A stretch of 64,000 nt of DNA. It comes from Paragonimus westermani (Eukaryota; Platyhelminthes; Trematoda; Plagiorchiida; Troglotrematidae). A model generated the notes under the pieces. The model was not told the origin of the DNA, did no database searches, and was given only the letters and a program-made list of their open reading frames with translations. Shown here piece after piece: positions 8,267 to 64,000 of the stretch. The stretch is from assembly GCA_008508345.1 (NCBI GenBank), contig QNGE01002361.1:1-64000 (forward strand), given 5' to 3'. How positions within the stretch are numbered: the first letter of the stretch is position 1; the number at the start of each line of letters is the position of its first letter. The position numbers and the translations under genes are program-made.

Positions 8267-8931
8267 TTATTCACCGTGTACCACGAATAGGCTCCCGGAG
8301 TCTTCTCCGAGTGACATGTGCGCACACTCACTGTCATTTAGAGGGAGACTCCAATCATCAGACCAACACTTAATACGATCAAGGTCAATCTGCGATACAT
8401 TGGGTTCACAGGCACTCCAGATTTTTAAGTCGTCGGCATAAAGGAGGGCGTTGCTAGAGATCAACTCGGGGAGAGCATTGATGTAGGTCAGAAACAACAA
8501 TGGACCAAGTATCGATCCTTGAGAGACTCCTACAGAGACTGGGGATGGAGAAAAAATGCATGAACCGGTTTTTACTCTGAAAGTCCTGTTACCAAGAATG
8601 GAAGTAATCAAGCGGAGAACTTCTCCTTGGATCCCATAGGCCTCTAGTTTATGTACCAGAAGACCGTGTGGGACACGGTCGAAGGCTTTGACAAAGTCGA
8701 AGAAGATAGCATCCGTGATATGACCATGGTCTTTGGCCTCCGCTAGGCTATCCATGAAGATTAACATATTAGTTATGTCTGACCGATCGGGAAGAAAGCC
8801 AGGCTTGGTCGAAGAGAAAAGGTTATCTGAGAAGAAATGCCTAAAGATAGCGCGTTTTAACAGTCGCTGTATTATCTTGCATAATATGCTGGTAAGACTG
8901 ATCGACCGGTAACTAGCAGGAGAGTGACGAT
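8267..8931 (-). pseudogene. LINE reverse transcriptase palm, YADD intact
   Basis: Visible motifs are SYRSISLTSILCKIIQRLLK, a KPGFLPDRSDITNML finger region, FFDFVKAFDRVPHGLLVHKL with the first catalytic Asp, GVSQGSILGPLLFLTYIN, and LLYADDLKIW with the full YADD catalytic pair. The N-terminal fingers lie beyond the LTR insertion at 9463-9666 in the same frame. The catalytic core is intact, but the ORF is cut by the insertion upstream and by a TAA downstream. Confidence 0.9.
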
Positions 8932-9458
8932 TGTAGTGGACGAGTGGGTATGCGCTCGACCCTCGTCCACTAACAATGTGAAAAAACTTTCCTAAAGAAC
9001 AGTCGAAACGTAGTCCCATCAGACATCAAACTAAAAGAACGCATCAGGGTTTGGAACCAAACCGTATATTTCCAGCAGTGCTGGGAAATATGACAACCAG
9101 TTAGTTCTAGCCTACTCTGGGTCCAGCGGCAACAACCAAGGGAAGAAAGAAGAGGCGCGAAGTAGGCCACAGCCCACTCGGTAGCATTCAAAAGCCCGCC
9201 GAGAGAGAAGTGCCTGGGAACTTCAAGTGCGTTAAACAACGCTCGAAAAGATCCAGGTCAAACGACCTTGAATAATGGAGAAATAGATGAGTCGTTAGAA
9301 GAGGAGCAAACATTCGCTGCGTGCAATTCGTTGCACGGTCAAAGAAAGTGTCACTGAGTTCATATCAGGCCTTCAATAGCAGGCGTACGCAGAATCATGC
9401 GTAAAGAACAGACAAGCAATAAAACATGGTTGCATCCGGGATCCTCAGAGAAGCCACA
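8932..9458. mobile_element. Probable solo LTR inserted in the LINE
   Basis: A 527-bp block starts TGTAGTGG and ends AGCCACA, so it has TGT...ACA ends as LTRs do. It is flanked on both sides by the same 4 bp (CGAT at 8928-8931 and 9459-9462). Removing the block plus one CGAT rejoins the RT reading frame exactly, between a KTGD-type and an SPASYR-type motif. An AATAAA at 9418-9423, about 35 bp before the right end, suggests that the LTR is in plus orientation. A short inverted repeat (GTGGACGAG...CTCGTCCAC) lies at 8936-8972. No internal element genes are present. Confidence 0.75.
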
Positions 9459-9462
9459 CGAT

Positions 9463-9666
9463 CGCCTGTCTTAAATAGAGTCGTGACGGTGGCCTTTTTC
9501 TATGCATCCGGCAGAGTTCCTGTCCGAAGTGTCTGCTTAAACAGATTAAAGAGGGGCACCGCCAAACTGAGGGTTGCTTCTTTGAGGATCCGGGGATGGA
9601 TTGCGTCCGGTCCCATGGCACTACAAGGATTGATCTTGAGCAAGATGTCCTGAACGTCAGACGCAA
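9463..9666 (-). pseudogene. LINE reverse transcriptase N-terminal (fingers) part
   Basis: On the minus strand from about 9665 the frame reads FASDVQDILLKINPCSAMGP and continues through an AIHPRILKEA-type block, LAVPLFNLFKQTLRTGTLPD, and an ATVTTLFKTGD-like strand. This is the standard RT N-terminus of CR1/jockey LINEs. It ends at the CGAT duplication bordering the solo LTR and continues in the same frame beyond it. Confidence 0.85.
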
Positions 9667-10205
9667 ATAAGTCAGCTGTCAGGAGTAGGTATTTGAAGTG
9701 TCTCCGCTGGAGAATTGGATGCCAGTTTGGCAGATCTACATTGTAGACTGTTTAGTAACACCTCGGCAACCACTCGAGGGTTAGAGGAGGTTTCCCCGTC
9801 GTGAAGCCGCAGAGAAAGCGCTGAGGGCTTAGTTTCTCTCTGGCGACGCATATACTTGAGAAGAAAATTCTTATTCTCGTGATCTACCTGTAGGATTTTT
9901 GACTGTACCTGTTGGGCGTGTTGCCGGATTCCTCGCTTGCACCTGTTTCTTGCAGAGCGAAAGGCCTCTAGATCCTCTGGCTTACTCGTTAGCTCCTGTT
10001 TGGAGAATAGACGAGAGCGTACTTCAAGAATACGACGTATGTTCCGCGGAAGCGGTGCACGAGAGGAGGACTTCCATAGCTTTCAAGGAACAAATGCCTC
10101 ATCAGCTTCGTGAATTGCAGCTTTAAAAGAAATGCAGTTCGAGTTCACTGAGTTCACTGGATGTGAGGCTGAGTTTGGTTAAGAAATTCCCCTAGTGCGT
10201 TAAAG

Positions 10206-10922
10206 TCAGCTTTCTGGATGTTTCGGAATGAAGTTTTTGTCACAGCACTTTGGAGCCAGTAAGAGCATGTGGTCACTATGCCCTGGCGGTGGTTTGATGA
10301 CCACTCTATCTACCAGGTGAACCTTGTTCGTAGTGACCAGGTCGAGCAAGGAGGGTATCTGTCCTGGACGGTGCCTTGTAGGTAGATCGACATGTTGTGT
10401 CCAGGCTTCCTCATGAATCAACATTACCAAGGGTTTCGATAACCCGCAGCCACACCCATCATGAGAAGCCGCCAGAGAGTCGAGTTTGGGTGCATTGAAG
10501 TCACCGATAATAAGAAGATGGGAAAAACGCTGGGTAGACGTGAGTCTGTCTAAGGTAGTAAGAATGGCCTCGTCGTCGGATGCACTGCGTGACGGCGAAC
10601 GGTACATAACACCGGCAAGGAGCGTGTCACGTCTACGAAGTTGGAGTTTGATCCAGAGCGTGTCTCATTTCTCTAAGAAAGTGAATACCCCTACGGCTGC
10701 TGGCACTGGGAGCTTCTGGCTTAGGAAAACGGCGCACCTCTCCATGCGTCTACGAGAGGAGTCCGTCCGGTACAAAGAGTAACCAGGGACATGCAGTTCA
10801 TTGTCACTGATATCCGCGGATAGCCAGGTCTCTGTTAAATCAAGAATGTGAGGGCTAGTGTCGTGGACCAGCTGTCTGATTTCTGGCAGTTTGTTCAGAA
10901 GACTCAGACAGTTGGTGTTCAC
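10206..10922 (-). pseudogene. LINE apurinic-like endonuclease domain, one stop
   Basis: This domain nicks target DNA to prime reverse transcription. From 10922 the frame reads LSLLNKLPEIRQLVHDTSPH, then DLTETWLS with the catalytic Glu motif. After an in-frame TGA at 10665-10667 it continues unbroken with VMYRSPSRSAS, LLIIGDFNAP (the GDFN motif) and PPPGHSDHMLL (the catalytic SDH motif). All three signatures of the exonuclease-endonuclease-phosphatase fold are kept. The RT lies about 540 bp downstream on the same strand. Inactive as it stands because of the stop codon, but otherwise well preserved. Confidence 0.88.
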
Positions 10923-11145
10923 GCACTTGACGGCTACTTCCTCGTTTAGCTGAGTGCAAAAGTAGACTGAAGTGCACGAGGAAGAGCTTGATAAAGCAAT
11001 CTCAGTAGCGAGAGGAGTGCTTATCTGGAAGTATAGTTTTGTGGGCCCTCTTGAGGGGTGGCGGCCATTTCATCACAGCCTGGGCATGTGTGAGCGTCCC
11101 TGTGGGACGCTTCGTCCGCTTCTGTTGGCCCAAGGTCAATGACCT

Positions 11146-28223: not shown

Positions 28224-28608
28224 GAAGACACTTTTAGGTCTGAGATCACAAAGTAACCCTGGACAGAGTTATCTACTGCATGCTGGTCGTTCGGATGCTA
28301 GTGTGATTTGGTTGAATGTCTCATGTGACCGTATTGTAGTGCTTGCTAACTGGTTATCACCTGAGCATTCGGTACGCACACTTTTGCTGGCTGCGCTTTA
28401 ACCTTGCGTTGTAGTTGGGGTCCGTTCGATAATGCACAATTCAAATTACTGAGAGGTTACCTCTCTTGAAGTTTCAAGAATAATCAGGAGAATTATGTAC
28501 TACAATAGCTTTTAACGCAGTAATCTGATGGCCAGAGGTACCATCCGATAAGTTCACAGCTTTCTAACATGATTGAAAAATTGACGTATTCATTGTTACT
28601 ACTATGCT

Positions 28609-29040
28609 TACTAATGAGTAGCCTGGGATTCGGTTTATTTTCAAGTTCAACATCACTCACATTTAATCGCAGCCTTCGCATTCAGATAGAATTTGCAGCC
28701 AGCCTCTTTCGAAAAGAAGCACTAGACTCGAGTTTCGTTCTCATTAAAGATCATCAGTAGTCCATATCCTTGCCATGGTCGGGATTTGAACTCCGGCCAT
28801 TCCAATCATGAGACAACCGTGTTGACCACTGCGCCATTCACCTCACATTAGGCACGACCGAATTATCAAATCTGAACGCTCAACCACTCTCGCTTGTGAG
28901 CAATGATCAGGTTTCCGGATCGTCTCGAGAGGAGACACAGTAAGTGTTCTGTTAACTCCAATCGATAATCCCGCGATTAAGACTTCCGAGACAGGTCGAA
29001 CTCACTGATCTCGTTAAACCTGCAAGGCGATATTTTAGGT
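28609..29040 (-). repeat. Ribozyme repeat monomer, full length, followed by a second start
   Basis: A nearly complete copy in minus orientation. In that orientation, a region TCTCGAGACGATCCGGAAACC is followed by a Pol III-type box A (TGGCGCAGTGG, at 28836-28826), box B (GGAGTTCAAATCCC, at 28794-28781), a hammerhead region near 28760-28715, and the tail ending near 28612. A second copy begins at about 29041 (CTGATGAGTAGTCGGGG), so the same point recurs 432 bp apart. The hammerhead core is kept, but the closing G-C pair of stem II is lost. Confidence 0.8.
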
Positions 29041-33399: not shown

Positions 33400-33835
33400 T
33401 ACTGAGTAGTCAGGGATTTGGTTTATTTTCAAGTTCAACATCACTCACATTTAATCGCAGCCTTCGCATTCAGATAGAATTTGCAGCCAGTCTCATTCGA
33501 AAAGAAGCTCTAGACTCGAGTTTTGATCTCATTAAAGATCATCAGTAGTCCATATCCTTGCCATGGTCGGGATTTGAACTCCGGACATTCCAATCATGAG
33601 ACAACCGTGTTGACCACTGCGTCATTCACCTCACATTAGGCACGACCGAATTATCAAATCTGAACGCTCAACCACTCTCGCTTGTGAGCAATGATCAGGT
33701 TTCCCGCTCGTCTCGAGAGGAGACACAGTAAGTGTTCTGTTAACTCCAATCGATAACTCCGCGATTAAGACTTCCGAGACAGGTCGAACTCACTGATCTC
33801 ATTAAACCTGCAAGGCGATATTTTTTAGATTACCT
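33400..33835 (-). repeat. Ribozyme repeat monomer, full length
   Basis: This copy is about 95% identical by eye to 28609-29040, including the region beyond the promoter boxes (GATTAAGACTTCCGAGACAG and CCTGCAAGGCGATATTTT). The next copy starts at 33838, so the period is 434 bp. The hammerhead GAAA is mutated to CAAA, so this ribozyme copy should be inactive. Box A is changed by one base (GTCATT for GCCATT in the plus-strand reading). Confidence 0.8.
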
Positions 33836-34065
33836 ATGAGTAGTCGGGGATTTGGTTAATTTTCAAGTCGAACATCACTCACAGTTGATCGCAGTCTTCG
33901 TATCCAGATAGAATTCCCAGCCGGCCTCTTTCGGAAGGGAGCACTAGACTCGAGTTTCGCTCTCATTAGAGCTCGTAAGTGCTTCTTTTCGAAAGAGGCC
34001 GACTGGAAAGTCTATCTGAATGCAAAGGCTGCAATCAAATGTGAGTGATGGTCAACTTGAAGCTA
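33836..34065. repeat. Ribozyme repeat fold-back copy
   Basis: The left half (33836-33974) is the repeat tail plus hammerhead in minus orientation. The right half (33976-34063) is the same tail in plus orientation, so the unit can fold on itself over about 85 bp. The hinge falls inside the hammerhead, which is truncated (CTTACGA instead of CTGACGA). It directly follows the monomer at 33400-33835. Confidence 0.7.
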
Positions 34066-37287: not shown

Positions 37288-38272
37288 NNNNNNNNNNNNN
37301 NNNNNNNNNNNNNNNNNNNNNNNNNNNNNNNNNNNNNNNNNNNNNNNNNNNNNNNNNNNNNNNNNNNNNNNNNNNNNNNNNNNNNNNNNNNNNNNNNNNN
37401 NNNNNNNNNNNNNNNNNNNNNNNNNNNNNNNNNNNNNNNNNNNNNNNNNNNNNNNNNNNNNNNNNNNNNNNNNNNNNNNNNNNNNNNNNNNNNNNNNNNN
37501 NNNNNNNNNNNNNNNNNNNNNNNNNNNNNNNNNNNNNNNNNNNNNNNNNNNNNNNNNNNNNNNNNNNNNNNNNNNNNNNNNNNNNNNNNNNNNNNNNNNN
37601 NNNNNNNNNNNNNNNNNNNNNNNNNNNNNNNNNNNNNNNNNNNNNNNNNNNNNNNNNNNNNNNNNNNNNNNNNNNNNNNNNNNNNNNNNNNNNNNNNNNN
37701 NNNNNNNNNNNNNNNNNNNNNNNNNNNNNNNNNNNNNNNNNNNNNNNNNNNNNNNNNNNNNNNNNNNNNNNNNNNNNNNNNNNNNNNNNNNNNNNNNNNN
37801 NNNNNNNNNNNNNNNNNNNNNNNNNNNNNNNNNNNNNNNNNNNNNNNNNNNNNNNNNNNNNNNNNNNNNNNNNNNNNNNNNNNNNNNNNNNNNNNNNNNN
37901 NNNNNNNNNNNNNNNNNNNNNNNNNNNNNNNNNNNNNNNNNNNNNNNNNNNNNNNNNNNNNNNNNNNNNNNNNNNNNNNNNNNNNNNNNNNNNNNNNNNN
38001 NNNNNNNNNNNNNNNNNNNNNNNNNNNNNNNNNNNNNNNNNNNNNNNNNNNNNNNNNNNNNNNNNNNNNNNNNNNNNNNNNNNNNNNNNNNNNNNNNNNN
38101 NNNNNNNNNNNNNNNNNNNNNNNNNNNNNNNNNNNNNNNNNNNNNNNNNNNNNNNNNNNNNNNNNNNNNNNNNNNNNNNNNNNNNNNNNNNNNNNNNNNN
38201 NNNNNNNNNNNNNNNNNNNNNNNNNNNNNNNNNNNNNNNNNNNNNNNNNNNNNNNNNNNNNNNNNNNNNNNN
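37288..38272. other. Assembly gap (985 N)
   Basis: This is a run of unknown bases. Penelope-like sequence on the left and hammerhead-bearing palindrome on the right suggest that the missing part belongs to a Penelope-like element. Confidence 0.98.
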
Positions 38273-38375
38273 CACCAAATGTAGTACGAATGAAGTTGAA
38301 TAGTTTGGGCGTCGTGTTTAACATGTTATTGATATACAGATTGGGAATAACACAACGTTTCGAGCAAGTTGTAAT

Positions 38376-38416
38376 ACTCAACGTTTCAACCACCTCGGGT
38401 GGCCTTCCTCAGGAGT
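38376..38416 (-). ncRNA. Minimal hammerhead-like motif, left palindrome arm
   Basis: This is the exact mirror image of the motif at 38435-38475, because the two lie in a perfect palindrome. The same core and the same weakness (an extra A in stem II) apply. Confidence 0.5.
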
Positions 38417-38434
38417 GTTGTAATCGATTACAAC

Positions 38435-38475
38435 ACTCCTGAGGAAGGCCACCCGAGGTGGTTGAAACGTTGAGT
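38435..38475 (+). ncRNA. Minimal hammerhead-like motif, right palindrome arm
   Basis: The order is ACTC (38435-38438), CTGAGGA core (38439-38445, with the variable position 7 as G), and stem II GGCCAC/GTGGTT with two G-U pairs and one extra A. Then come GAAA (38464-38467), CG, U16.1 at 38470, H17 = U at 38471, and GAGT (38472-38475) pairing with ACTC. It matches the minimal Penelope-type form. The extra A at the base of stem II may reduce activity. Confidence 0.5.
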
Positions 38476-38530
38476 ATTACAACTTGCTCGAAACGTTGTG
38501 TTATTCCCAATCTGTATATCACTAACATCT

Positions 38531-43982: not shown

Positions 43983-46600
43983 TCATCCTGGTGGTGTACT
44001 GATCCATGATGCATGAGTCCCACCGGTAGTGGATGCCAGTGTGGAAGCGAGTACCTGAGTAGCCGTTGTGTTTTCTGTTGTTCCTTGGAACGTAACGGTA
44101 GGGCTGGAGTCGGCCCATTTCGGTTCAGCAGGATAGGCTGGTTTCACGGACGTGCAGCAGTGTTTAAACTCAGACCGTCTCCTAGTGTTCACAGTGTGCA
44201 CAATGTCGATTGAATCCTCAAGATCCATGGTGTTTGTAATATTCCCCGACCTTGAACATGGTGGGAGGAGTTCTTGATAAGGTGGCTCACTTTGTGTGAA
44301 CTGCAGCTGGCCATTCAACTGTGACCCATCAGGCTCTGATGTCCCTGGCTGTGGACATGTAGACATCGGTGAAGTCTTGTCAACAGCAAATGCGGTACAT
44401 ACGACACTTTGACGTTGTTCTTCAGGTTTGTAAATTGTTGGTTCATTCGTCGACAAGACCAGTGGATTTATAACCGACGACCATCCAGACTGAGTCATTT
44501 GCGTTGTAAACGTAGGATTCGTATCATGCCACTCCTGATCAGTGTTGTTTTCTGGTGTGTTAAATCGTACCCTGGGTCCGAACGGGTTAGGTGTGAAACA
44601 CGATTGTATACTATCCCGTTCGTGTAACTCCAGTGGATCAGTGAGGTGTTGCCTAAATTCTGTTGCGTTAGCGAATGAGGGTCCAGAAGAAGAGGTAGAA
44701 ATTTCATTCAAATCCCGTGAACTACAGTTAGATGACACACGATCTTCAATGAGCCTTCGTTCTGTTTCATCAGTATGCACCACAGTGGCATCTTCCTGTT
44801 TGCAGTGTGAAGGCGCGTTTTTTCTACTATCCACCTGAACCGCCTGAGTTCCTCCCAGATGAGCATAGGGTTGTGTAACAGCCTGCCTGAATGTAGGTTG
44901 AAGGTACCTGTCGTTGATAACCTCCGAGGCGTTCCTCACGCGAACGGTATCCAAACTATGTCTGTTGTCACCTGATCTCGGAAACTGTGATACAAATTCA
45001 GATTGACGGCTAAATTCGTCCAGTGGTCTAACGTCTAGGGGTCGTTGTTCTTGTTGTTGATGTTGCTGATGCTGGGCCACCTCACGATGGAGTGCAACTG
45101 CAGCAGCCGCAGCGGCCGCAAACGCAGCTGCTCTAGTCTGATAATCTGTAGTCTCTAGAACATAACCCGCTGCTTCGTTCGCCAATTCCCGACTAGGGTG
45201 AGTACACAGATGATTCGGTTCGATAGTTTTGTGAGGTCCACCGTCAAAATACTCATCCGACGAGGATCGAGTAACATTTTCCAAAGTCGACTGGGCTGCT
45301 CCTAATCTCACCCAATTTTCGTGCGCCATATTTATATCGTTCAGACCGTTCGTGATGTCGTTGCTTTTACTGGTGTTCGTAACGTGAGCAGAACAACCTG
45401 AAATGTCTTTCCCACTCGGGATAAATTCGAAACCGTTGTAAGCTGAAGGCTCCCCAAATATCTGAGCCGAAATGGAGCAGTATGTAGCTCTGGGTTGTGC
45501 GGCTTGCACAGGGGCTGTTGCATTCTCGATTAGACTTCGAAACATCGTTTCATGTGAGGATGCTTTAGTTACAAGCGCTGGTGTGGAACTCCCATACAAT
45601 TCACTGTAAACCGGTGAAGTGGACCACAAGTTTACAGCTACCTCTGGGGCAAATCGCGATATTGGCCTAGAATGAAAACATGCCGAATTGTCCAACTGTA
45701 AAGAGGATTTCTGTACACCCTCATTATGGTTACTGAATCCATGTGTTGAAATACGGTGATTGCGGGCGTCGTTGCCAACTGTACCGGGTTGTGTATCGCA
45801 AAGTCTCGGCTCACAACCCGCATAGGAATAACAGTTTCCTTGCAGTTTAGTGTCTAGAAAAAGCTGGGTGGGGAAATCCGAGGCATGTGCCAAGTTGAAA
45901 TGTACAGGGTTAACACTGTGCGAAAAGGTATCAAGAGTTGGACGGGTGATCCCATCTTCTATGCAGTCCAGAAAGGCTCCAGCAACGCCCTTAGCCAAGT
46001 TGAAGGCACTTTTCTTATGAATCGGCGGCGACGGAGAAAGTTGCTTTTCGAGTGTACGAACACCAGCTGTCGAGTCATCTGTATGTTCAGGATTTCTCGA
46101 GTTCAAATGATCGAGATAGCATGATGGTTCAGTAGTGGCCGTGTAAACTGCAGAGGTTGTACCGACCATATTCAGGGCCATTGCACTGTCTAAGTAATTG
46201 TGATGAGCATACACATTCGTAAAGTTGGGTGCTCTCGTTGGCAATGGATATGATAGTAGTGGCTGTAAAAACATCGAATCGGTAGACTCCGGTTGAGTAG
46301 TCATGGTATTTAAGCCAAGTGCAAGAGGGAATTTGTTGTTCGTGTATGCCTCTGTGAGTTTTGTCAGATAAGGATACGGGAACAATGACTGTGGTTGCCT
46401 GAGTCCCATTGCAGGAAAAGATGCAGAAGCGTTGAATTTTGGAAGATACGAATTCGAACCGAATCCCAGTGATCTTGAAGCCGGACTCTCTTTCTGATGA
46501 GACAGTCCTTTGAGCAACGGATCCTCGCGGCCGACTGTTTTATTTGATGAACGTTCACGTTTTTCCGTTCGTTGTTCCGTGAACTCTTGGACGACCTCTC
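43983..46600 (-). CDS. DM-domain transcription factor, predicted C-terminal exon
   Basis: This is an open frame of about 871 codons from a splice acceptor (TTTTCGCACTCAG at 46613-46601) to TGA at 43983-43985. The acceptor is phase 1, matching the phase-1 donor of the DM-domain exon upstream at 48356/48355. The joined chain would be about 1185 residues. The exon begins with a charged stretch (EVVQEFTEQRTEKRERSS), then low-complexity Ser/Thr/Asn/Pro sequence typical of activation or linker regions. A poly-Ala run is followed by a His/Gln run at about 45050-45135. No second DNA-binding domain is visible. An upstream TTG at 46517 is not a plausible start. The link to the DM exon is inferred from splice signals, phase and strand. 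Confidence 0.65.
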
Positions 46601-46724
46601 CTGAGTGCGAAAACGAGTGTAGAGTAAGTTGTCAGCATAATAGAGATTATCTTCAAGAAGATACTTCGGAAGGGGCTTGAACAACAGTAAGCACTAAGTT
46701 AACCCGTATTCATATTTCATTACA

Positions 46725-46930
46725 TCTTATACATTCAGATAGACACTTCGACCTATCTCATTTGAAAAGAAAAATTAAGTACGAGTTTCGCTGTTGTCAG
46801 GGCTTGTTAACTGTGCATATCCTCCACATGGCCGGGATTAGGATCGTGGCTGCGTTCTCAAGAGGTAACTGTGTTGACCACTGTGCCAATGGCCTGGCAT
46901 TAGACACAACTACTTAACCACACCTGTCTG
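46725..46930 (-). repeat. Ribozyme repeat, degenerate copy
   Basis: Recognisable parts in minus orientation are the tail (CATTCAGATAGAC in the plus reading), a broken hammerhead near 46775-46815, a box B-like GGCCGGGATTAGGATC region and box A-like TGACCACTGTGCCAATGG. The ribozyme core is lost. Confidence 0.6.
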
Positions 46931-46960
46931 TGAGTAATGCTCAGCAGACAGAAGAAACAT

Positions 46961-47179
46961 TTTCAAGTTGACCATCACTCACATTTAATCGCAGCCTTCG
47001 CATTCAGATAGACTTTCCAGCCAGCCTCTTTCGAAAAGAAGCACTAGACTCGAGTTTCGCTCTCATTAGAGCTCGTCAGTAGTGCATATCATTGCCACGA
47101 CCGGGATTTGAATGCGTAGGCTGTGATCAAACGTGAGTGATGGTTAACTTGAAAATAAACCAAATCCCCGACTACTCAT
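46961..47179 (-). repeat. Ribozyme repeat, fold-back copy with 12-bp target duplication
   Basis: This 219-bp insertion is flanked by the same 12 bp (CAGAAGAAACAT) at 46949-46960 and 47180-47191. In minus orientation it runs from an inverted tail (ATGAGTAGTCGGGGATTTGG...), through a partial box B (CAAATCCCGG), to an intact hammerhead (47085-47041) and the normal tail ending in CAACTTGAAA. The target duplication points to insertion as a unit, probably by retroposition. Confidence 0.85.
47041..47085 (-). ncRNA. Hammerhead ribozyme, complete core
   Basis: On the minus strand the 45 nt read as stem I strand GCACTA (47085-47080), core CTGACGA (47079-47073), stem II GCTCT-AATG-AGAGC (47072-47059), core GAAA (47058-47055), stem III within ACTCGAGT (the 15.1 A is the last A of GAAA), C17 at 47047, and stem I strand TAGTGC (47046-47041). 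All invariant residues are present; stem I pairs 6 of 6 and stem II 5 of 5. The cleavage triplet is GUC, with the predicted cut between 47047 and 47046. The layout resembles the Schistosoma Sm-alpha ribozyme. Self-cleavage is predicted, not shown. Confidence 0.85.
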
Positions 47180-47249
47180 CAGAAGAAACATTGTTAATAA
47201 AACCACAGACAAACTACTTATTAACGCTGTTAGTTGATCGGTGGCTTAG

Positions 47250-47462
47250 CCGGGCAAACTTCATTTCAAATTCTGAGTTCCAGTGATTTTTGTTGGTCCA
47301 TATGAATGGAAACTTCATTGACAATCTGTGTTTCCATTAAAGCTCATTGGCAGTGCATACCATTTTTCATGCCTAGAGTTAAGTCACGGTCCACTCGATT
47401 CAGCGACGTAATCGTACTGACCGTTACACTCTTGCCTTCATCCTGAACCTGACTCAATTATG
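47250..47462 (-). repeat. Ribozyme repeat, very degenerate copy
   Basis: The order of weak matches (CCATTAAAGCTCATTGGCAGTGCATACCATT, then a GTACTGACCGTTACACTC-like box A region and GACTCAATTAT) follows the repeat in minus orientation. No functional core remains. Confidence 0.45.
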
Positions 47463-47814
47463 GCATTTTAAAGTGCTCTGTGGTTCACGTTTAGAGTGTC
47501 TGATTTACTCGAGTGGTGACATGCCGATTGTCATATTACTTGACCTCAGGAGAGTTCAGGCAGGATAAAGTCAGTAGCTTCATAACTGTCTAATTCCATG
47601 ATGTCACAGTTTGCAGCTGAGATCAATTTATCTCCACAACCAACAAGATCATTGAAGGACAGGTCACAATGGATGATGCCCGCCTGGTAATTGTGATTAA
47701 GCATGACAAATCAATTTGATGTTCGGTTTTGTTGCGCTCAAAAAGTTGGAATGCCATTCGAAAGTAAGCAACAACAACCACTGGAACTACTAATTAGCTG
47801 CGGATCTGGTTACC

Positions 47815-48190
47815 GTTTAGGTCGAACATCAGTCATAGTTACTGGCAGCTTTCGCGTTCACTTTGACTGTTCAGCCGGCAACCTTCGAAAAGAGGCACTA
47901 GGCTCGAGTTTAGTTCTCGTTTAGGCTCATCAGTACTGCTTATTCTTGCCACAGTCGGAATCGGATCTACGACTAGGCTTTCACGAGAAAATCGTGTTCA
48001 CCACTGTGTCGTCGACTTCACATTATACGTGAAAGGAGACACGGTTACTGTTCGACTAACTTAGTTGATAACCTCATCACTACACTCGGTTAACCATGTT
48101 TGAATTACTGATGACAGGCTAGCTAGAAAGCCAAGCTGAATGCAAAAACGTCATTCCCTTATGAGTGATATTTAACTCGAAAGCACTTGA
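47815..48190 (-). repeat. Ribozyme repeat, old copy
   Basis: In minus orientation this has tail, hammerhead region (47911-47955), box B and box A remnants, the GAGACACGGTTACTGTTCGACTAAC region (plus reading) and the far end. The hammerhead keeps CTGATGA, but GAAA has become TAAA, so it should not cleave. Confidence 0.65.
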
Positions 48191-48248
48191 TCATATGTCA
48201 GAATTAGTACCTATCGGTGCATTGTAATAGATGTCTAGTGGCGCGGCT

Positions 48249-49295
48249 TTAAACTTGATTCCAAAAGTTAGTCAGTTTATTTTTTAATGTAAGTACACTA
48301 GTGGAACAGACTGTAAGATCACAATCTAGCTGACGCAAAAGCAGGTAGAACTTACTTAAATTCTTCTCATTCGACTTCCTCAAAGAAATTAGAATGCACT
48401 GCTGACAATAGCAATTCCTATAAGGACAAGACTTCTTGTGACCTTTCCAAGGATTATTTTTACCGTGATTGCGGCACCGACGACAATGTGGTCCTTCGTC
48501 TTCGACTGGGTCATCCAGTCTTAGTTTGGAGGTGATCTGGTTGAACGGGTGTATGACTTTTTCCGCTACTCCCAGTGTACGAGTTGCATGGGACTGTTGA
48601 ATCTGATGTTGTTTCAGTGGACTGGGATTTGTATTCGCGTTGTTTTTCTGATCCCGGTACAGTGCGATCTGCTTGGCCACAATGTTACGTCCGTAATTGA
48701 CCAACGAGCAAACAGAGCAGTTGCAACTGCGAAATGGACAATTTCGTTTATGTTGCTTAACCGGAAGTAGCTTTCCGTGGGCACGACATTTGCGACACAT
48801 ATACGATGAACGTGACAAAGAGTTGCCTGTGGTGTCTGCCGACTGCGACTGAACACCTCCACGAACCTCCGGTCTCTTACAGTGACCAGGCTTCGCTGAA
48901 CGAGTCGAGTTACCGTTGATTTTGCTCGATACACCGCGATGAGGTGGATGGACCACACACTGTGACCTAGGCTGACCAGCTGCAACCGTTGGTGTACTGC
49001 TGGTGACTACGTTGGCGGGCGCTGTGTAGCTCTGGTTCCTTCCAATGCCCGTATCGAAGTGTCTGGAAGTTCGTTCTTCCGTTTCGTTCCTTCCGATGGT
49101 GGTTGATAGATGATGTGAAAATGACTGTGTTCTATGTAGAGTTTCCTGGTTTTGTGTGGAATCGATAAGGGCTTCTGATTGGGTTGAATTGGTAGTTGTG
49201 GTTAGATCACTGGATAGAAATTGGGAGAACAGGTGGTTGATTAGTGCCAGTCGTAGGTTTTGTGCAAAGGTATGCACCAGTGTGGGTCTGTCCAT
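48249..49295 (-). CDS. DM-domain (DMRT/doublesex-mab-3 family) transcription factor exon with two DM domains
   Basis: An ATG at 49295 opens 348 codons. Residues 1-160 are Ser/Thr/Asn-rich. DM domain 1 is at about 165-218: MCRKCRAHG, KQHKRNCPFRSCNCSVC and the recognition helix GRNIVAKQIALYRDQ. DM domain 2 is at about 269-320: HCRRCRNHG, KGHKKSCPYRNCYCQQC and a divergent helix. Both keep the interlaced Cys/His zinc ligands. DM proteins bind DNA in the minor groove and commonly control sexual development. A strong donor (TTTAA|GTAAGT, GT at 48355-48354) lies in codon 314 and would splice to 46600; the remaining 35 codons to the stop at 48249 would then be intronic. Two DM domains in one protein is rare; C. 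elegans MAB-3 is the known example. Confidence 0.92.
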   Translation of the reverse strand: MDRPTLVHTFAQNLRLALINHLFSQFLSSDLTTTTNSTQSEALIDSTQNQETLHRTQSFSHHLSTTIGRNETEERTSRHFDTGIGRNQSYTAPANVVTSSTPTVAAGQPRSQCVVHPPHRGVSSKINGNSTRSAKPGHCKRPEVRGGVQSQSADTTGNSLSRSSYMCRKCRAHGKLLPVKQHKRNCPFRSCNCSVCSLVNYGRNIVAKQIALYRDQKNNANTNPSPLKQHQIQQSHATRTLGVAEKVIHPFNQITSKLRLDDPVEDEGPHCRRCRNHGKNNPWKGHKKSCPYRNCYCQQCILISLRKSNEKNLSKFYLLLRQLDCDLTVCSTSVLTLKNKLTNFWNQV

Positions 49296-55860: not shown

Positions 55861-56080
55861 TGGATTACTGATGAGTAGTCGGGGATTTGGTTTTATTTTC
55901 AAGTTACCATCACTCACACTTGATCGCAGCCTTCGCATTCAGATAGACTTTCCAGCCGGCCTCTTTCGAAAAGAAACACTAGGCTCGAGTTTCGCTCTCA
56001 TTAGAGCTCGTCATTGCTCACAAGCGCGAGTGGTTGAGCTTTCAGATTGGATAATTCGGTCGTGCCTAATGTGAGGTCAA

Positions 56081-56136
56081 TGGCGCAGTGGTCAACACGG
56101 TTGCCTCATGATTGGAATGGCAGGAGTTCAAATCCC
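56081..56136 (+). promoter_or_regulatory. Pol III-type internal promoter (box A and box B)
   Basis: Box A TGGCGCAGTGG matches the consensus TRGCNNAGYGG, and box B GGAGTTCAAATCCC contains the GWTCRANNC core in recognisable form. The spacing of about 32 bp between them is as in tRNA genes. The boxes lie 20-80 bp upstream of the hammerhead, the arrangement seen in Sm-alpha-type repeats. Confidence 0.65.
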
Positions 56137-56154
56137 GGTCGTGGCAAGGATATC

Positions 56155-56198
56155 CACTAACTGACGAGCTCTAATGAGAGCGAAACTCGAGTCTAGTG
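56155..56198 (+). ncRNA. Hammerhead ribozyme, complete core with one bulged base in stem I
   Basis: CACTA (56155-56159), one extra A, CTGACGA (56161-56167), stem II GCTCT-AATG-AGAGC (56168-56181), GAAA (56182-56185), CTCGAGTC (56186-56193) and TAGTG (56194-56198). Core and stem II are perfect. CACTA pairs with TAGTG only if A56160 bulges. The predicted cut is after 56193. Confidence 0.75.
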
Positions 56199-56283
56199 TT
56201 TCTTTTCGAAAGAGGCCGGCTGGAAAGTCTATCTGAATGCGAAGGCTGCGATCAAATGCGAGTGATGGTCATCTTGGAAATAA

Positions 56284-57570
56284 AAACTTATGGTCATTTT
56301 TTAGGCACGTTAGCTACCGATTGTAAAAAGTTGAACTGAGGCTCACTTGGGGTCTGTGTGGAAATATGAGTCTGTGATTATCTGCAAAGTTGACCACAGC
56401 TAAAAAATTTATGCCCAAGTTTACTGCGACCATTCAACGTTGCCCACTGTATGGATTCAAATATGTTGCCTACTGAAGATACACACCTTACTTGCAGTTT
56501 AGATGAAATCAAAACCCAGCACACCGTCTCCTTTTGACACTGTCAGCTGACAACCTGAGCCTAACTGGGAAAGTTGTGGGACGACAAAAACATGGATAAA
56601 GCTGTGGGTTACTAGACGACAGGTTTACAGTGTCTGACAACTCTCTCTCTCTCTGGAATGATTCCACTGAAGGTGTCTACTAACAGTTCATTTGAATGAA
56701 CTATAACATAATATTGGCTTTCTCAGATATGTAGATGATATCCGTGATGTGCACGGCCAATGAAAGGCCGATCGCTAACCTGTCGACCAACCAATGAAAC
56801 ATGAAATCTGACTTATCGTGATAGATAAACGAACAATTTTGAGACATCTTCAGAGTAGGGCTCAAACTGCGTATTCACCAACAACAACGTTCTAGTAGTC
56901 AAAGTCATCCATGTATACCAACTCAGTCAGAAAATTTAAAAAAACACGGTCAATCCTCATTATTTTTTGTTACTAGACTTGTAAAACAAACGCGCTGTTT
57001 AACCCAACTAAACCGCCAGAAAAAGCCAACTTGTTTCCGAAATATACTAAGTCTTTACTAATCGGTGTTTTCTGTGTGAGTAATGACTAAATTAGTTTGA
57101 TGAGAAACCCAGGCACAGTATGTTGGGTGATCCAGTTTCCTCAACATTATAGCTGACATATAACGGTAATCATATTTAGATACGAAACTTGTTGCCTCCG
57201 CTGATTTGTAAATTGTTAGACACAACGCCGGTATTCTATTGTAGCTTGGTTAATTCTCGACTTGTAAACCAATTGTTTACCGAACTATGTGATAGTGAAG
57301 TAATCCGAATCGATAGCAAAACAGAAAACGCGAAATTGAGCGCGAACTAACTGGAAGGCAAATTTGAAAAGCAGATTTCTGAACCGAACTTTTTCGACGC
57401 TAACGAAGTGTATGTGGTCGATATGTTTTTGACAATGAAGCGGACCTTTCGTGTACTTTGTTCACGGGAATTTCTAGGGTTCCAATAGCATTGTTTTGCT
57501 GTTCATGCAACAGCTTATTTCTATCTCTTGTTCACAGTTTAAATTTCATTCGTTCTGTTATACTTTCTTT
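56284..57570. other. Unassigned spacer
   Basis: No gene is recognised. A short CT microsatellite lies at about 56639-56654. Confidence 0.35.
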
Positions 57571-58740: not shown

Positions 58741-58744
58741 TGAG

Positions 58745-59115
58745 TCTTCGAAGTCCTAATCGCGGGGTTATCGATTGCAGTTAACACGCAGTAAATGTGT
58801 CTCCTCTCGAGACAGTCGGGAAACCTGATCATTGCTCACAAGCAAAAGTGGTCGAGCGTTCAGATTTGATAATTCAGTCGTGCCTAACGTGGCGCAGTGG
58901 TCAATACGGTTGCCCCTGATTGGAATGGCCGGAGTTCAATTCCCGGCGATGGCAAGGATATGGACTACTCATGAGCTCTAATGACAGCGAAACTCGAGTC
59001 TAGTGCTTCTTTTCGAAAGAGGCTGGCTGCAAATTCTACCTGAATGCGAAGGCTGCGATCAAATGTGTGATGTTCAACTTGAAAACAAAACAAATCCTCG
59101 ACTACACATCAGTAA
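58745..59115 (+). repeat. Ribozyme repeat, plus-orientation copy
   Basis: Nearly complete: CTAATCGCGGGGTTATCGATTG, TGTCTCCTCTCGAGACAG, GCGTTCAGATTTGATAATTC, box A GTGGCGCAGTGG near 58889-58900, box B GGAGTTCAATTCCC near 58931-58944, hammerhead region (58965-59012), and a tail ending CAAATCCTCGACTACACATCAGTAA. The core has G5 changed to C (CTCATGA) and one stem II mismatch, so it should be inactive. Confidence 0.8.
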
Positions 59116-59673: not shown

Positions 59674-60305
59674 ATGTTCACTAATGGTGTTTTGTTGGTG
59701 ATAACTAATTTCTAAGACAGTGATATCCCGATGCAAAGATAAAGAGGCGTCAGCACCAGTCTATCATTGTTGCCTGTGCTATACTGTAAAAATTGTAGCA
59801 CACAAGTAGTTATCGATCCCTAGAATTTCATTGATTAACAATTCAAATAAATGTACATATTAACCCGCGAAAATCATGGAGACAGAACAGAACCGCAAAA
59901 ACGTATGCGAAACTTCTTACACAGATCGGTGTTTACACTGGTCCGCAGATGATCCACTAGCGGTTGTTAACAAAACCGAACCAGAACTTTAAACAACTTA
60001 CTATACATTTTGTCAAACAAAAATGAACTTCACCAATGACCAGAGCTTTACTCTATTTGTTGAGCACAACACAACCACCAACCTTAAACAGACGGAGACT
60101 TTCAATTCCGCTGTTTTAGTCTGAGATGGATCTTCTTTTCCGCTGTTAGCCACCGAATCGACTTGCTCAGACGTCAAATCCGGTTCGGTTTTTGTGCATT
60201 GATTGTTGGGAAACAGAATAGTGTCCGGAGCTAGATTGGTTCTGTCATTCTGAAAACGGGTGTAGGCATCGATCATAGGGGTTCTGGGTTGTGACCTCAA
60301 TACAT
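59674..60305. repeat. Left arm of a large inverted repeat
   Basis: This segment is the reverse complement of 63369-64000; I saw no mismatch in the stretches compared. It covers the C-terminal part of the exon at 60013-60873 plus about 340 bp beyond its stop. The repeat continues past the window end on the right, so its true length is unknown. Confidence 0.9.
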
Positions 60306-60873
60306 GAGCTCCATCTACCGTTGAACCATAGGACGGGTGTACTAGCTGCCAGTTGGTAGATCCGAACCACTGGTGTTCTCCACAGTTCACGTTCGTACCA
60401 GTCACTTTAGAACAGCTCTCTGTGGGTAGCCCTATCGGGAATGACCCCAGCTTGGCGACCTCATTTGTGCCGGCTCGATTCACCGGACTAGATGTGCGAA
60501 ACCATGAGGATAACTGTACTGCAGGAATAGTGGGAAGGTCAAACGGGTTCTGGTTTGGATGTTGTCCATTGTTAATACGGTTGATAGCTTGTGGGCTGAA
60601 CCAGTGGATTGGTATTCCACCAACAAAGTCATTGCGGCTGACGGTGCTTTCAGAGTTGCAAAGGGCGCTAGTGTTGAATGCATTAAATTCAGTTGACTCG
60701 GAACTGACGGTTGTGACACTCGTGGATGTAGCGGCAGATATTACTGTTGTAGTTACTACGGTTGGAATGCGTTGTCTGTCCGTCGGGTTCAAAACACTGA
60801 ACGTCTGGATGTCGGGCACAATGTATATATCAGAACTCATTGTCTGTTTGAGGTGCGTGTGCGTTTGAGACAA
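60013..60873 (-). CDS. Ser/Thr/Asn-rich exon of unknown gene
   Basis: This 286-codon frame begins MSQTHTHLKQTMSSDIYIVP. The second Met (codon 12, after ACAGACA) is an equally likely start. The protein is rich in Ser, Thr, Asn and Pro, with VVTTTVISAATSTSVTTVSS near residue 40 and acidic TKTEPDLTSEQVDSV near 230, as in transcription-factor linker or activation regions. No domain is visible. A donor-like TTTAAG|GTTGGT lies near 60089, after which the frame turns hydrophobic (LVVVLC), so the real coding part may end there. It lies 10.7 kb upstream of the DM-domain exon on the same strand; a common gene is possible but unsupported. Its first half is duplicated at 61034-61390. Confidence 0.5.
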   Translation of the reverse strand: MSQTHTHLKQTMSSDIYIVPDIQTFSVLNPTDRQRIPTVVTTTVISAATSTSVTTVSSESTEFNAFNTSALCNSESTVSRNDFVGGIPIHWFSPQAINRINNGQHPNQNPFDLPTIPAVQLSSWFRTSSPVNRAGTNEVAKLGSFPIGLPTESCSKVTGTNVNCGEHQWFGSTNWQLVHPSYGSTVDGAHVLRSQPRTPMIDAYTRFQNDRTNLAPDTILFPNNQCTKTEPDLTSEQVDSVANSGKEDPSQTKTAELKVSVCLRLVVVLCSTNRVKLWSLVKFIFV

Positions 60874-61033
60874 ATTGCTACTCTCCTAGTACCATGTAGC
60901 AACTCTTTAGACTGATAGCGTCCACCGCGAACAAGAACTAGAACATTTTACACGGTAGCTTTTAGCCTTGATTATGCGCACCGGATGGGTGCACCCGCGT
61001 ACGTGCACGTGTGTTATGTGCAGCTCTTTCCTA
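60517..61033. repeat. 517-bp tandem repeat, copy 1
   Basis: This is a direct repeat of 61034-61550, offset by exactly 517 bp, with no difference seen on inspection. It covers the first 119 codons of the exon and the upstream sequence up to GCAGCTCTTTCCTA. Confidence 0.9.
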
Positions 61034-61550
61034 TACTGCAGGAATAGTGGGAAGGTCAAACGGGTTCTGGTTTGGATGTTGTCCATTGTTAATACGGTTG
61101 ATAGCTTGTGGGCTGAACCAGTGGATTGGTATTCCACCAACAAAGTCATTGCGGCTGACGGTGCTTTCAGAGTTGCAAAGGGCGCTAGTGTTGAATGCAT
61201 TAAATTCAGTTGACTCGGAACTGACGGTTGTGACACTCGTGGATGTAGCGGCAGATATTACTGTTGTAGTTACTACGGTTGGAATGCGTTGTCTGTCCGT
61301 CGGGTTCAAAACACTGAACGTCTGGATGTCGGGCACAATGTATATATCAGAACTCATTGTCTGTTTGAGGTGCGTGTGCGTTTGAGACAAATTGCTACTC
61401 TCCTAGTACCATGTAGCAACTCTTTAGACTGATAGCGTCCACCGCGAACAAGAACTAGAACATTTTACACGGTAGCTTTTAGCCTTGATTATGCGCACCG
61501 GATGGGTGCACCCGCGTACGTGCACGTGTGTTATGTGCAGCTCTTTCCTG
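61034..61550. repeat. 517-bp tandem repeat, copy 2
   Basis: This second copy directly abuts copy 1. It carries a truncated duplicate of the exon start (minus-strand frame 61031-61390, 119 codons) without the rest of the exon. Confidence 0.9.
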
Positions 61551-63286: not shown

Positions 63287-63661
63287 TTGAACATATTCGA
63301 TTTCCCTCTGCCAACCCGTGTTGCAAGCGGAACGGAAACTAATACTTGTTCAACAGTAGGTGGAACTGATGTATTGAGGTCACAACCCAGAACCCCTATG
63401 ATCGATGCCTACACCCGTTTTCAGAATGACAGAACCAATCTAGCTCCGGACACTATTCTGTTTCCCAACAATCAATGCACAAAAACCGAACCGGATTTGA
63501 CGTCTGAGCAAGTCGATTCGGTGGCTAACAGCGGAAAAGAAGATCCATCTCAGACTAAAACAGCGGAATTGAAAGTCTCCGTCTGTTTAAGGTTGGTGGT
63601 TGTGTTGTGCTCAACAAATAGAGTAAAGCTCTGGTCATTGGTGAAGTTCATTTTTGTTTGA
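63287..63661 (+). pseudogene. Inverted partial copy of the Ser/Thr-rich exon
   Basis: From codon 29 this frame is identical to the C-terminal 96 residues of the exon at 60013-60873 (VLRSQPRTPMIDAYTRFQND onward to the stop). Just upstream the DNA is still related but diverged (TTCAACAGTAGGTGGAACTG against TTCAACGGTAGATGGAGCTC), and the peptide before it (GTETNTCSTVGGTD) differs from the original. It is either a truncated paralogue, an alternative exon copy or an assembly product. Confidence 0.5.
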
Positions 63662-64000
63662 CAAAATGTATAGTAAGTTGTTTAAAGTTCTGGTTCGGTT
63701 TTGTTAACAACCGCTAGTGGATCATCTGCGGACCAGTGTAAACACCGATCTGTGTAAGAAGTTTCGCATACGTTTTTGCGGTTCTGTTCTGTCTCCATGA
63801 TTTTCGCGGGTTAATATGTACATTTATTTGAATTGTTAATCAATGAAATTCTAGGGATCGATAACTACTTGTGTGCTACAATTTTTACAGTATAGCACAG
63901 GCAACAATGATAGACTGGTGCTGACGCCTCTTTATCTTTGCATCGGGATATCACTGTCTTAGAAATTAGTTATCACCAACAAAACACCATTAGTGAACAT
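63369..64000. repeat. Right arm of a large inverted repeat (runs off the window)
   Basis: This is the reverse complement of 59674-60305 without an observed mismatch, including non-coding sequence after the stop codon. The coordinate sum is constant (123674), so there are no indels. The spacer between arms is 3063 bp. Confidence 0.9.

What the first reader, a model, noticed from the sequence alone, without database searches (positions are those of the whole stretch)
47041..47085. Intact hammerhead ribozyme inside a DM-domain gene intron
All conserved hammerhead positions are present with perfect stems I and II and a GUC cleavage triplet. It lies in an interspersed repeat, in the sense orientation of the predicted DMRT-type gene, so the pre-mRNA could cut itself within the intron. 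Hammerheads in Schistosoma Sm-alpha repeats are established; an intact copy in the sense strand of a sex-regulator-type intron is an unusual setting and might influence splicing. The functional effect is inference.
Basis: partly seen in the sequence, partly recalled or inferred. Interest (0 to 1): 0.75.

Follow-up and report, generated by a model that had tools for sequence, protein, structure and literature searches.

The report
Intronic copy of a hammerhead retrotransposon
The self-cutting RNA motif is real and looks intact, but it is one of thousands of identical copies of a young mobile element that happened to land in this lung-fluke gene, so the setting is ordinary and any role in the gene is unproven.

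Summary
The motif is real. RF00163 matches 47041-47085(-) at 34.7 bits against a cut-off of 34. Core and stems are intact, and the cut falls between 47047 and 47046. It lies in sense in a 1,755-nt intron (46601-48355) of a two-DM-domain gene of Paragonimus westermani. Removing the intron reproduces the annotated 1,185-aa protein exactly.

It is not special to this gene. The same 33-nt core occurs 2,591 times in the 823-Mb assembly, reversed-pattern control 0. The element is a 431-nt, tandem-forming, Sm-alpha/retrozyme-like unit with Pol III A and B boxes and a type I hammerhead. This copy is a 5'-inverted insertion with a 13-bp target-site duplication. It lacks both boxes and has no private change in 154 nt. 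The ribozyme is intact because the insertion is young.

Across related copies the hammerhead decays about as fast as its flanks. Predicted folding melts stem I within about 30-50 nt of further transcription. Intronic Sm-alpha-type hammerheads are published for Schistosoma mucin genes (PMC2576457, passages).

New member of a known kind. An effect on splicing is possible but unsupported.

The parts
47041..47085 (-). Type I hammerhead ribozyme, core and stems intact
   Evidence: Rfam RF00163 34.7 bits, gathering 34; core letters checked
47046..47047 (-). Predicted cleavage site (between 47047 and 47046, after GUC)
   Evidence: read from the alignment; inference, no assay
46959..47112 (-). Inverted arm of the insertion: retrozyme/SINE segment from the remains of box B through the hammerhead into the tail
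   Evidence: 91.6% to the 28-kb copy and 94.2% to the 56-kb copy; 3 of 154 positions differ from the family majority
47106..47182 (+). 3' arm of the same insertion: element tail to its 3' end, opposite strand, overlapping the other arm by 51 nt of unit sequence
   Evidence: inverted repeat 46959-47009 / 47106-47156, 45 of 51 identical
46949..46961 (.). Target-site duplication CAGAAGAAACATT, left copy
47180..47192 (.). Target-site duplication CAGAAGAAACATT, right copy
46601..48355 (-). Host intron, 1,755 nt, donor A|GTAAGT, acceptor CAG|GA
   Evidence: spliced product identical to P0020, 1,185 aa
48356..49295 (-). Exon with two DM domains (MDRPTL... to NEKNL)
   Evidence: Pfam DM 97.9 bits, two stretches; P0020
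43983..46600 (-). Downstream exon (REVVQE... to the end of P0020)
   Evidence: P0020 100%, other Paragonimus 75-78%
47802..48025 (-). Older copy of the element in the same intron, same strand; core broken
   Evidence: 72-74% to other copies; core not intact
46732..46910 (-). Older copy of the element in the same intron, same strand; core broken
   Evidence: 65-71% to other copies; core not intact
55865..56285 (.). Second head-to-head insertion in the same gene: truncated minus-strand arm 55865-56013 and plus-strand arm 56011-56285 (exact core but one extra A beside stem I); flanks AAAAATTTATGG / AAAAACTTATGG
28604..28992 (-). Near full-length copy with A and B boxes; hammerhead core letters intact but base of stem II mismatched (25.2 bits)
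33400..34061 (.). Partial tandem dimer (minus) joined head-to-head to a plus-strand arm 33978-34061; cores broken
   Evidence: 33403-33546 repeated at 33837-33980
58744..59115 (+). Copy of the element, core broken (CUCAUGA)

Best explanation
[quoted passage not shown] Shown: the 431-nt unit, tandem copies, A and B boxes in longer copies, the type I hammerhead, target-site duplication, 5' inversion and very high copy number. Inferred: in full elements Pol III transcribes the unit, the hammerhead cuts multimeric RNA, the ends are rejoined, and a non-LTR reverse transcriptase reinserts it. At this site both Pol III boxes are gone and the hammerhead lies in the inverted arm, so it is transcribed only as part of the host intron. 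There it may cut a minority of pre-mRNAs before the downstream arm folds over it, with little or no effect on the spliced mRNA.
For: 2,591 exact copies of the core, reversed control 0. Best other copies 96-98% identical to this one over about 154 nt. No private change in 154 nt: the 3 departures from the majority are shared by 7 of 67, 27 of 72 and 28 of 72 rows. 13-bp target-site duplication. Tandem copies at a 431-nt period. A box TGGCGCAGTGG and B box GTTCAAATC in L036, L045 and the 28-kb copy but not here. Hammerhead no better kept than flanks: mean divergence 3.5% against 3.7% in 69 rows. In thermodynamic folding the ribozyme fold is 7.0 kcal/mol above the minimum in the 261-nt context, and stem I probability falls to 0.31 or less by 31 nt past the motif.
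Against: No RNA evidence of any kind was available. The paired Wilcoxon test gives p 0.04 for slightly lower divergence in the hammerhead than in the flanks. The two arms of this insertion agree at only 45 of 51 positions although one arm carries no private change, so they are not two copies of one RNA or one arm is older. Folding ignores loop-loop contacts and proteins, and one of two full-length copies folded as controls (L036) keeps stem I at 0.89, so burial is not general to the family. Sequence homology to Sm-alpha itself was not tested.
Confidence: 0.86

Rival explanations
1. The intronic hammerhead regulates the DM-domain gene: it cuts the pre-mRNA during transcription and lowers or alters splicing between the DM exon and the next exon, perhaps in a tissue-dependent way.
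For: Intact motif in sense in a confirmed intron. Precedent for ribozyme-dependent splicing: blocking the intronic Cpeb3 ribozyme raises spliced mRNA (PMC10919898, passages). Conserved intronic hammerheads in RECK and C10orf118 cleave in vitro (PMC3088659, passages).
Against: The motif equals the family's common sequence, so there is no sign that it was kept for this gene. The other two sense copies in this intron have broken cores. The cut lies 446 nt before the acceptor; at 3.5-4.1 knt/min (mammalian figure quoted in PMC10919898) that is about 7 s. At the 0.1-0.8 per min reported for mussel and coral retrozyme hammerheads (PMC7229834, passages) about 1-9% would be cut in that time. Predicted refolding buries stem I.
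Confidence: 0.05
2. The ribozyme does cut an appreciable share of pre-mRNAs here, but as tolerated collateral damage: the 51-nt arms hold the two cut ends together and the intron is removed anyway.
For: The 46959-47009 and 47106-47156 arms flank the motif and pair in the predicted fold (-105.9 kcal/mol, z -9.0). Schistosoma hammerheads ligate as well as cleave in vitro (recalled; cited in PMC2576457 passages).
Against: The same fold removes stem I. No RNA data.
Confidence: 0.08
3. A chance or dead motif, no ribozyme.
For: The Rfam score is only 0.7 bits over the cut-off; activity untested.
Against: Every core letter and all 13 pairs of the three stems are present, and the same sequence is the common form of a large family. 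On 21 distinct aligned copies 89.7% of 378 pair cells are standard, with 3 pairs changed on both sides, though shuffles do as well on some measures.
Confidence: 0.01

Closest known systems
Non-LTR retrozymes of metazoans (Cervera and de la Pena 2020, PMC7229834; passages seen)
   Same: Type I hammerhead in short tandem-forming non-coding repeats of a few hundred bp (150-450 bp in the paper, 431 here), interspersed in very many copies, target-site duplications longer than 4 bp, stem III of two pairs with a tetraloop as described for invertebrate motifs.
   Different: Pol III A and B boxes inside the unit; no RNA circles shown here; many insertions are head-to-head inverted (23 of 55 other loci), which the passages I saw do not mention.
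Sm-alpha / Sj-alpha SINE-like elements of Schistosoma (passages of PMC2770079, PMC8490949 and PMC2576457; the original papers were not held or not opened)
   Same: Trematode SINE-like element with Pol III boxes A and B upstream of a type I hammerhead; tens of thousands of candidates in S. mansoni.
   Different: Different genus; sequence homology between the two elements was not tested.
Intron-coded hammerheads of SmPoMuc genes, S. mansoni (Roger et al. 2008, PMC2576457; passages seen)
   Same: An Sm-alpha-type hammerhead in an intron of a trematode protein-coding gene; only some copies keep the core (G12).
   Different: There the boxes are kept and the insertion is shared by a gene family; here the boxes are lost and only this one gene is seen.
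Conserved intronic hammerheads of amniotes, RECK and C10orf118 (PMC3088659, PMC6155905; passages seen)
   Same: Type I hammerhead in an intron of a coding gene.
   Different: Those are kept across species and cleave in vitro; conservation could not be tested here and the sequence shows no sign of it.

Membership tests
Hammerhead ribozyme, type I (RF00163) | Covariance model score over the curated cut-off, open at stem I | tested here: met
   34.7 bits against 34, model 1-45 of 45
Hammerhead ribozyme, type I (RF00163) | Conserved core CUGANGA ... GAAA ... UH and three stems | tested here: met
   core letters intact; stems 6, 5 and 2 pairs read directly
Hammerhead ribozyme, type I (RF00163) | Self-cleavage | not testable with these tools
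   needs in vitro transcription
Metazoan non-LTR retrozyme | Tandem head-to-tail units of 150-450 bp with one hammerhead each | tested here: met
   three hammerheads 431 nt apart in L049; further tandem loci; 4 pairs 431 nt apart among the 100 of 2,591 places listed
Metazoan non-LTR retrozyme | High copy number, dispersed, with target-site duplications | tested here: met
   2,591 exact cores; 13-bp duplication here, 11 of 12 at the 56-kb insertion, weak at the 33.9-kb one
Metazoan non-LTR retrozyme | Expressed as circular RNA | not testable with these tools
   no RNA data held
Sm-alpha-like SINE | Pol III A and B boxes upstream of the hammerhead | tested here: met
   for the family: TGGCGCAGTGG and GTTCAAATC in L036, L045 and the 28-kb copy
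Sm-alpha-like SINE | The same boxes in this very copy | tested here: not met
   no A or B match in 46959-47182: a truncated copy
Sm-alpha-like SINE | Sequence homology to Schistosoma Sm-alpha | not tested
   no Sm-alpha sequence was fetched
Domesticated intronic hammerhead (RECK type) | Better kept than its surroundings | tested here: not met
   this copy equals the family's common form; across 69 rows divergence is 3.5% in the hammerhead and 3.7% outside, Wilcoxon p 0.04: at most a slight difference
Domesticated intronic hammerhead (RECK type) | Conserved at the same intron across species | not testable with these tools
   no DNA of other Paragonimus species is held; their proteins (P0021, P0022) show only that the exon junction is shared

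The most novel reading that the evidence does not exclude
The element copies itself into the genome from circular or multimeric RNA whose hammerhead site has been rejoined, with priming from both ends of the target, which yields overlapping head-to-head palindromes around the ribozyme. If so, genome copies record the RNA intermediate of retrozyme movement: no 5' end lies at the ribozyme cut in 28 readable other copies, copies run through the cut site, 23 of 55 other loci are head-to-head, and in L040 one arm crosses the boundary between two units. In this gene the palindrome also clamps the ribozyme between 51-nt arms, so that its activity would be limited to the short time before the second arm is made.
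Probability: 0.25. Interest if true: 0.5.

Novelty: new member of a known kind. Interest (0 to 1): 0.27.

Why it matters
It settles a tempting reading: an intact ribozyme in a DM-domain intron is here the expected by-product of a young, very numerous mobile element. It adds what appears to be an undescribed Sm-alpha/retrozyme-like family in the lung fluke; in the library searched, searches listed no paper describing one in Paragonimus (one search was not restrictive). With thousands of intact copies in one genome, the family also allows a clean genome-wide test of whether active sense-strand hammerheads are selected against in introns, and whether RNA circles are the template for new insertions.

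Tried and rejected
Sex-regulation link: only the DM domains support it; P. westermani is, from recall, a hermaphrodite. Co-literature search DMRT + hammerhead ribozyme gave 2 papers, neither about this by title and abstract.

Is the motif better kept than its flanks? No clear difference.

Do insertions start at the ribozyme cut, as they would if cut RNA were the template? 0 of 28 readable other copies start within 5 nt of it (30 rows; L061 is the window's own copy, L077 ends at a contig end). The query required the 88 nt after the cut, so copies truncated further downstream could not appear.

Covariation: the first count used a structure string out of register with the alignment and is void. 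The second is in register: pairs are far better than slid versions (89.7% against 30-53%), but shuffles reach the observed values fairly often (46 of 500 for cells paired, 115 of 500 for pairs changed on both sides), so covariation is weak.

The regex listing missed some copies (for example L036-L038, L046); replace it.

No tRNA gene is called in the window (the tool uses the bacterial setting), so 'tRNA-derived' is not claimed; the boxes rest. The exact core has no match in viral contigs.

Not obtained: nearest relatives of the plus-strand arm and an empty-site search in the own genome; the machine stayed busy.

One search scored only 74 of 136,546 candidates and does not list the window's own motif, so its 42 matches (35 over the cut-off) are no count of the family.

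Full report
What was checked. The minus strand of 47041-47085 reads GCACUA CUGACGA GCUCU AAUG AGAGC GAAA C UCGA G UC UAGUGC. cmscan with all of Rfam gives RF00163 at 34.7 bits, gathering 34, E 6.2e-05, the only match in the 64-kb window over any family's cut-off. With a loose threshold two further Hammerhead_1 matches appear at 26.7 and 25.2 bits. Stem III has two pairs and a UCGA loop, the form that PMC7229834 (passages) describes for invertebrate motifs; its loop is palindromic.

Organism and gene. The exon at 43983-46600(-) is 100% identical over 99% of the query to P0020, 'uncharacterized protein DEA37_0006415 [Paragonimus westermani]', on a contig of 117,580 bases; the window's own contig C2361 has that same length. 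Joining the two exons across 46601-48355 gives a protein identical to P0020 (1,185 aa). The junction NEKNL|REVVQE is shared with other Paragonimus proteins and with tapeworm proteins. The upstream exon holds two DM stretches. So the motif sits in sense in a well-supported intron: 1,309 nt lie between donor and cut, 446 nt between cut and acceptor end. No transcript evidence was available to me beyond the annotated protein.

The element. Ten copies or part-copies in the window include the hammerhead region; core letters are intact in 3 of 10 (28 kb, 47 kb, 56 kb). Of these, the 28-kb copy has a mismatched stem II base and the 56-kb copy an extra A beside stem I, so only the finding's copy has core and stems intact. 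Two other copies lie in the same intron on the same strand, both with broken cores. In the own assembly (823 Mb, 9,701 contigs) the 33-nt core occurs 1,273 + 1,318 = 2,591 times exactly, with 0 for the reversed pattern. Of the 100 places listed there, 4 pairs lie 431 nt apart in tandem, 4 pairs are head-to-head within 500 nt and none tail-to-tail. All 29 other loci fetched with the finding's 167-nt segment (40 of 1,823 candidates scored, 30 loci kept, one being the window itself) have intact core letters, 21 of 29 the exact 33-mer. L049 holds three hammerheads spaced 431 and 431 nt. Longer copies carry TGGCGCAGTGG and GTTCAAATC, fitting the Pol III A and B box consensus (consensus recalled; matches); the finding's copy has neither.

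How this copy came about. The hammerhead segment (46959-47112, minus) is joined head-to-head to a plus-strand tail (47106-47182), and the whole is flanked by CAGAAGAAACATT on both sides. That is a single insertion with a 5' inversion, as in twin priming of non-LTR elements (mechanism recalled). The 56-kb unit shows the same build with AAAAATTTATGG / AAAAACTTATGG, and the 33.9-kb unit with a weak repeat. In 25 of 57 loci, that is 23 of 55 after setting aside the window's own copy and the second arm of one insertion, an opposite-strand copy begins within 40 bp of the 5' end. Arms often overlap in unit coordinates (here by 51 nt), although L035 is of the non-overlapping kind. Overlap suggests multimeric, circular or separate RNA templates; this is inference.

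Age. Over 154 nt the copy departs from the family majority at 3 positions, each shared by other copies (7 of 67, 27 of 72 and 28 of 72 rows). It therefore has no private change, and its intact ribozyme needs no selection to explain it. Against a simple single-template history, the two arms agree at only 45 of 51 positions, and the plus arm's best match among fetched copies other than the window's own is 93.5% (those copies were chosen by the other arm).

Would it work in the pre-mRNA? Thermodynamic folding gives stem I a mean probability of 0.5-0.94 while the transcript ends 0-16 nt past the motif, over five upstream starts (one value, start 47400 at 11 nt, is 0.49), then 0.31 or less at 31 nt and, at 51 nt, 0.19 for the shortest transcript and 0.01 for the other four. 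In the 261-nt context the fold with stems I and II is 7.0 kcal/mol above the minimum. Of two other copies folded as a comparison, L045 also loses stem I but L036 keeps it at 0.89. Loop-loop contacts are not modelled. At transcription rates quoted for mammals the acceptor is made about 7 s after the cut site; with retrozyme rates of 0.1-0.8 per min (PMC7229834, passages) about 1-9% of transcripts would be cut in that time. PMC10919898 (passages) reports that fast intronic ribozymes hinder splicing and slow ones do not, citing Fong et al. 2009, which I have not seen. The most likely outcome is little effect.

Known precedents. Sm-alpha elements with hammerheads are abundant in Schistosoma (PMC2770079, passages). 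SmPoMuc genes carry such an element, with boxes A and B, between exons 9 and 10, and only one group of them keeps G12 (PMC2576457, passages). Amniote RECK and C10orf118 introns hold conserved, active hammerheads (PMC3088659, passages). The P. westermani genome paper lists 0.96% SINE and 12.97% unclassified repeats; the passages I saw do not mention ribozymes (PMC6329441). The search Paragonimus + hammerhead gave one paper, on a land-flatworm mitogenome (listing only).

Verdict. A real, apparently intact hammerhead, but an ordinary young copy of a high-copy element: new member of a known kind. Function in the DM gene: possible, unsupported, about 5%.

Noticed in passing
window 38330-38521: A perfect 192-bp palindrome directly beside the 985-base N gap 37288-38272; it produces the spurious miRNA matches. 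Possibly an assembly artefact.
   Followed up: partly
window 59674-60326 and 63348-64000; 60514-61032 and 61031-61549: A 653-bp inverted duplication (99.4%) and a 519-bp tandem duplication (99.8%) at the 5' exon of the DM gene; real or assembly error not decided.
   Followed up: partly
window 60013-60885 (-): ORF MSSDIYI... matches the N-terminus of P. skrjabini and P. heterotremus orthologs (P0021, P0022), but annotated P0020 starts at MDRPTL: the P. westermani gene model probably lacks its first exon.
   Followed up: partly
L001-L030 (own genome): At least two further hammerhead families: GTGGTGCTGATGAGACCCAACTAGGTCGAAACAGCTGTCCACCAC-like (for example L002-L005) and CTCCACCTGATGAGTCC-like (L011, L017, L020), the first scoring higher than the finding's family.
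   Followed up: no
L031-L090: The inverted arm of head-to-head copies often ends at the same place, 83-89 nt after the ribozyme cut (at CTTGAAA), about 30 nt before the element's 3' end: a preferred internal priming site?
   Followed up: partly
window 8267-11069 (-): Fragments of a non-LTR retrotransposon with RVT_1 and endonuclease-reverse transcriptase domains, the kind of enzyme that could move the element (link is inference).
   Followed up: no
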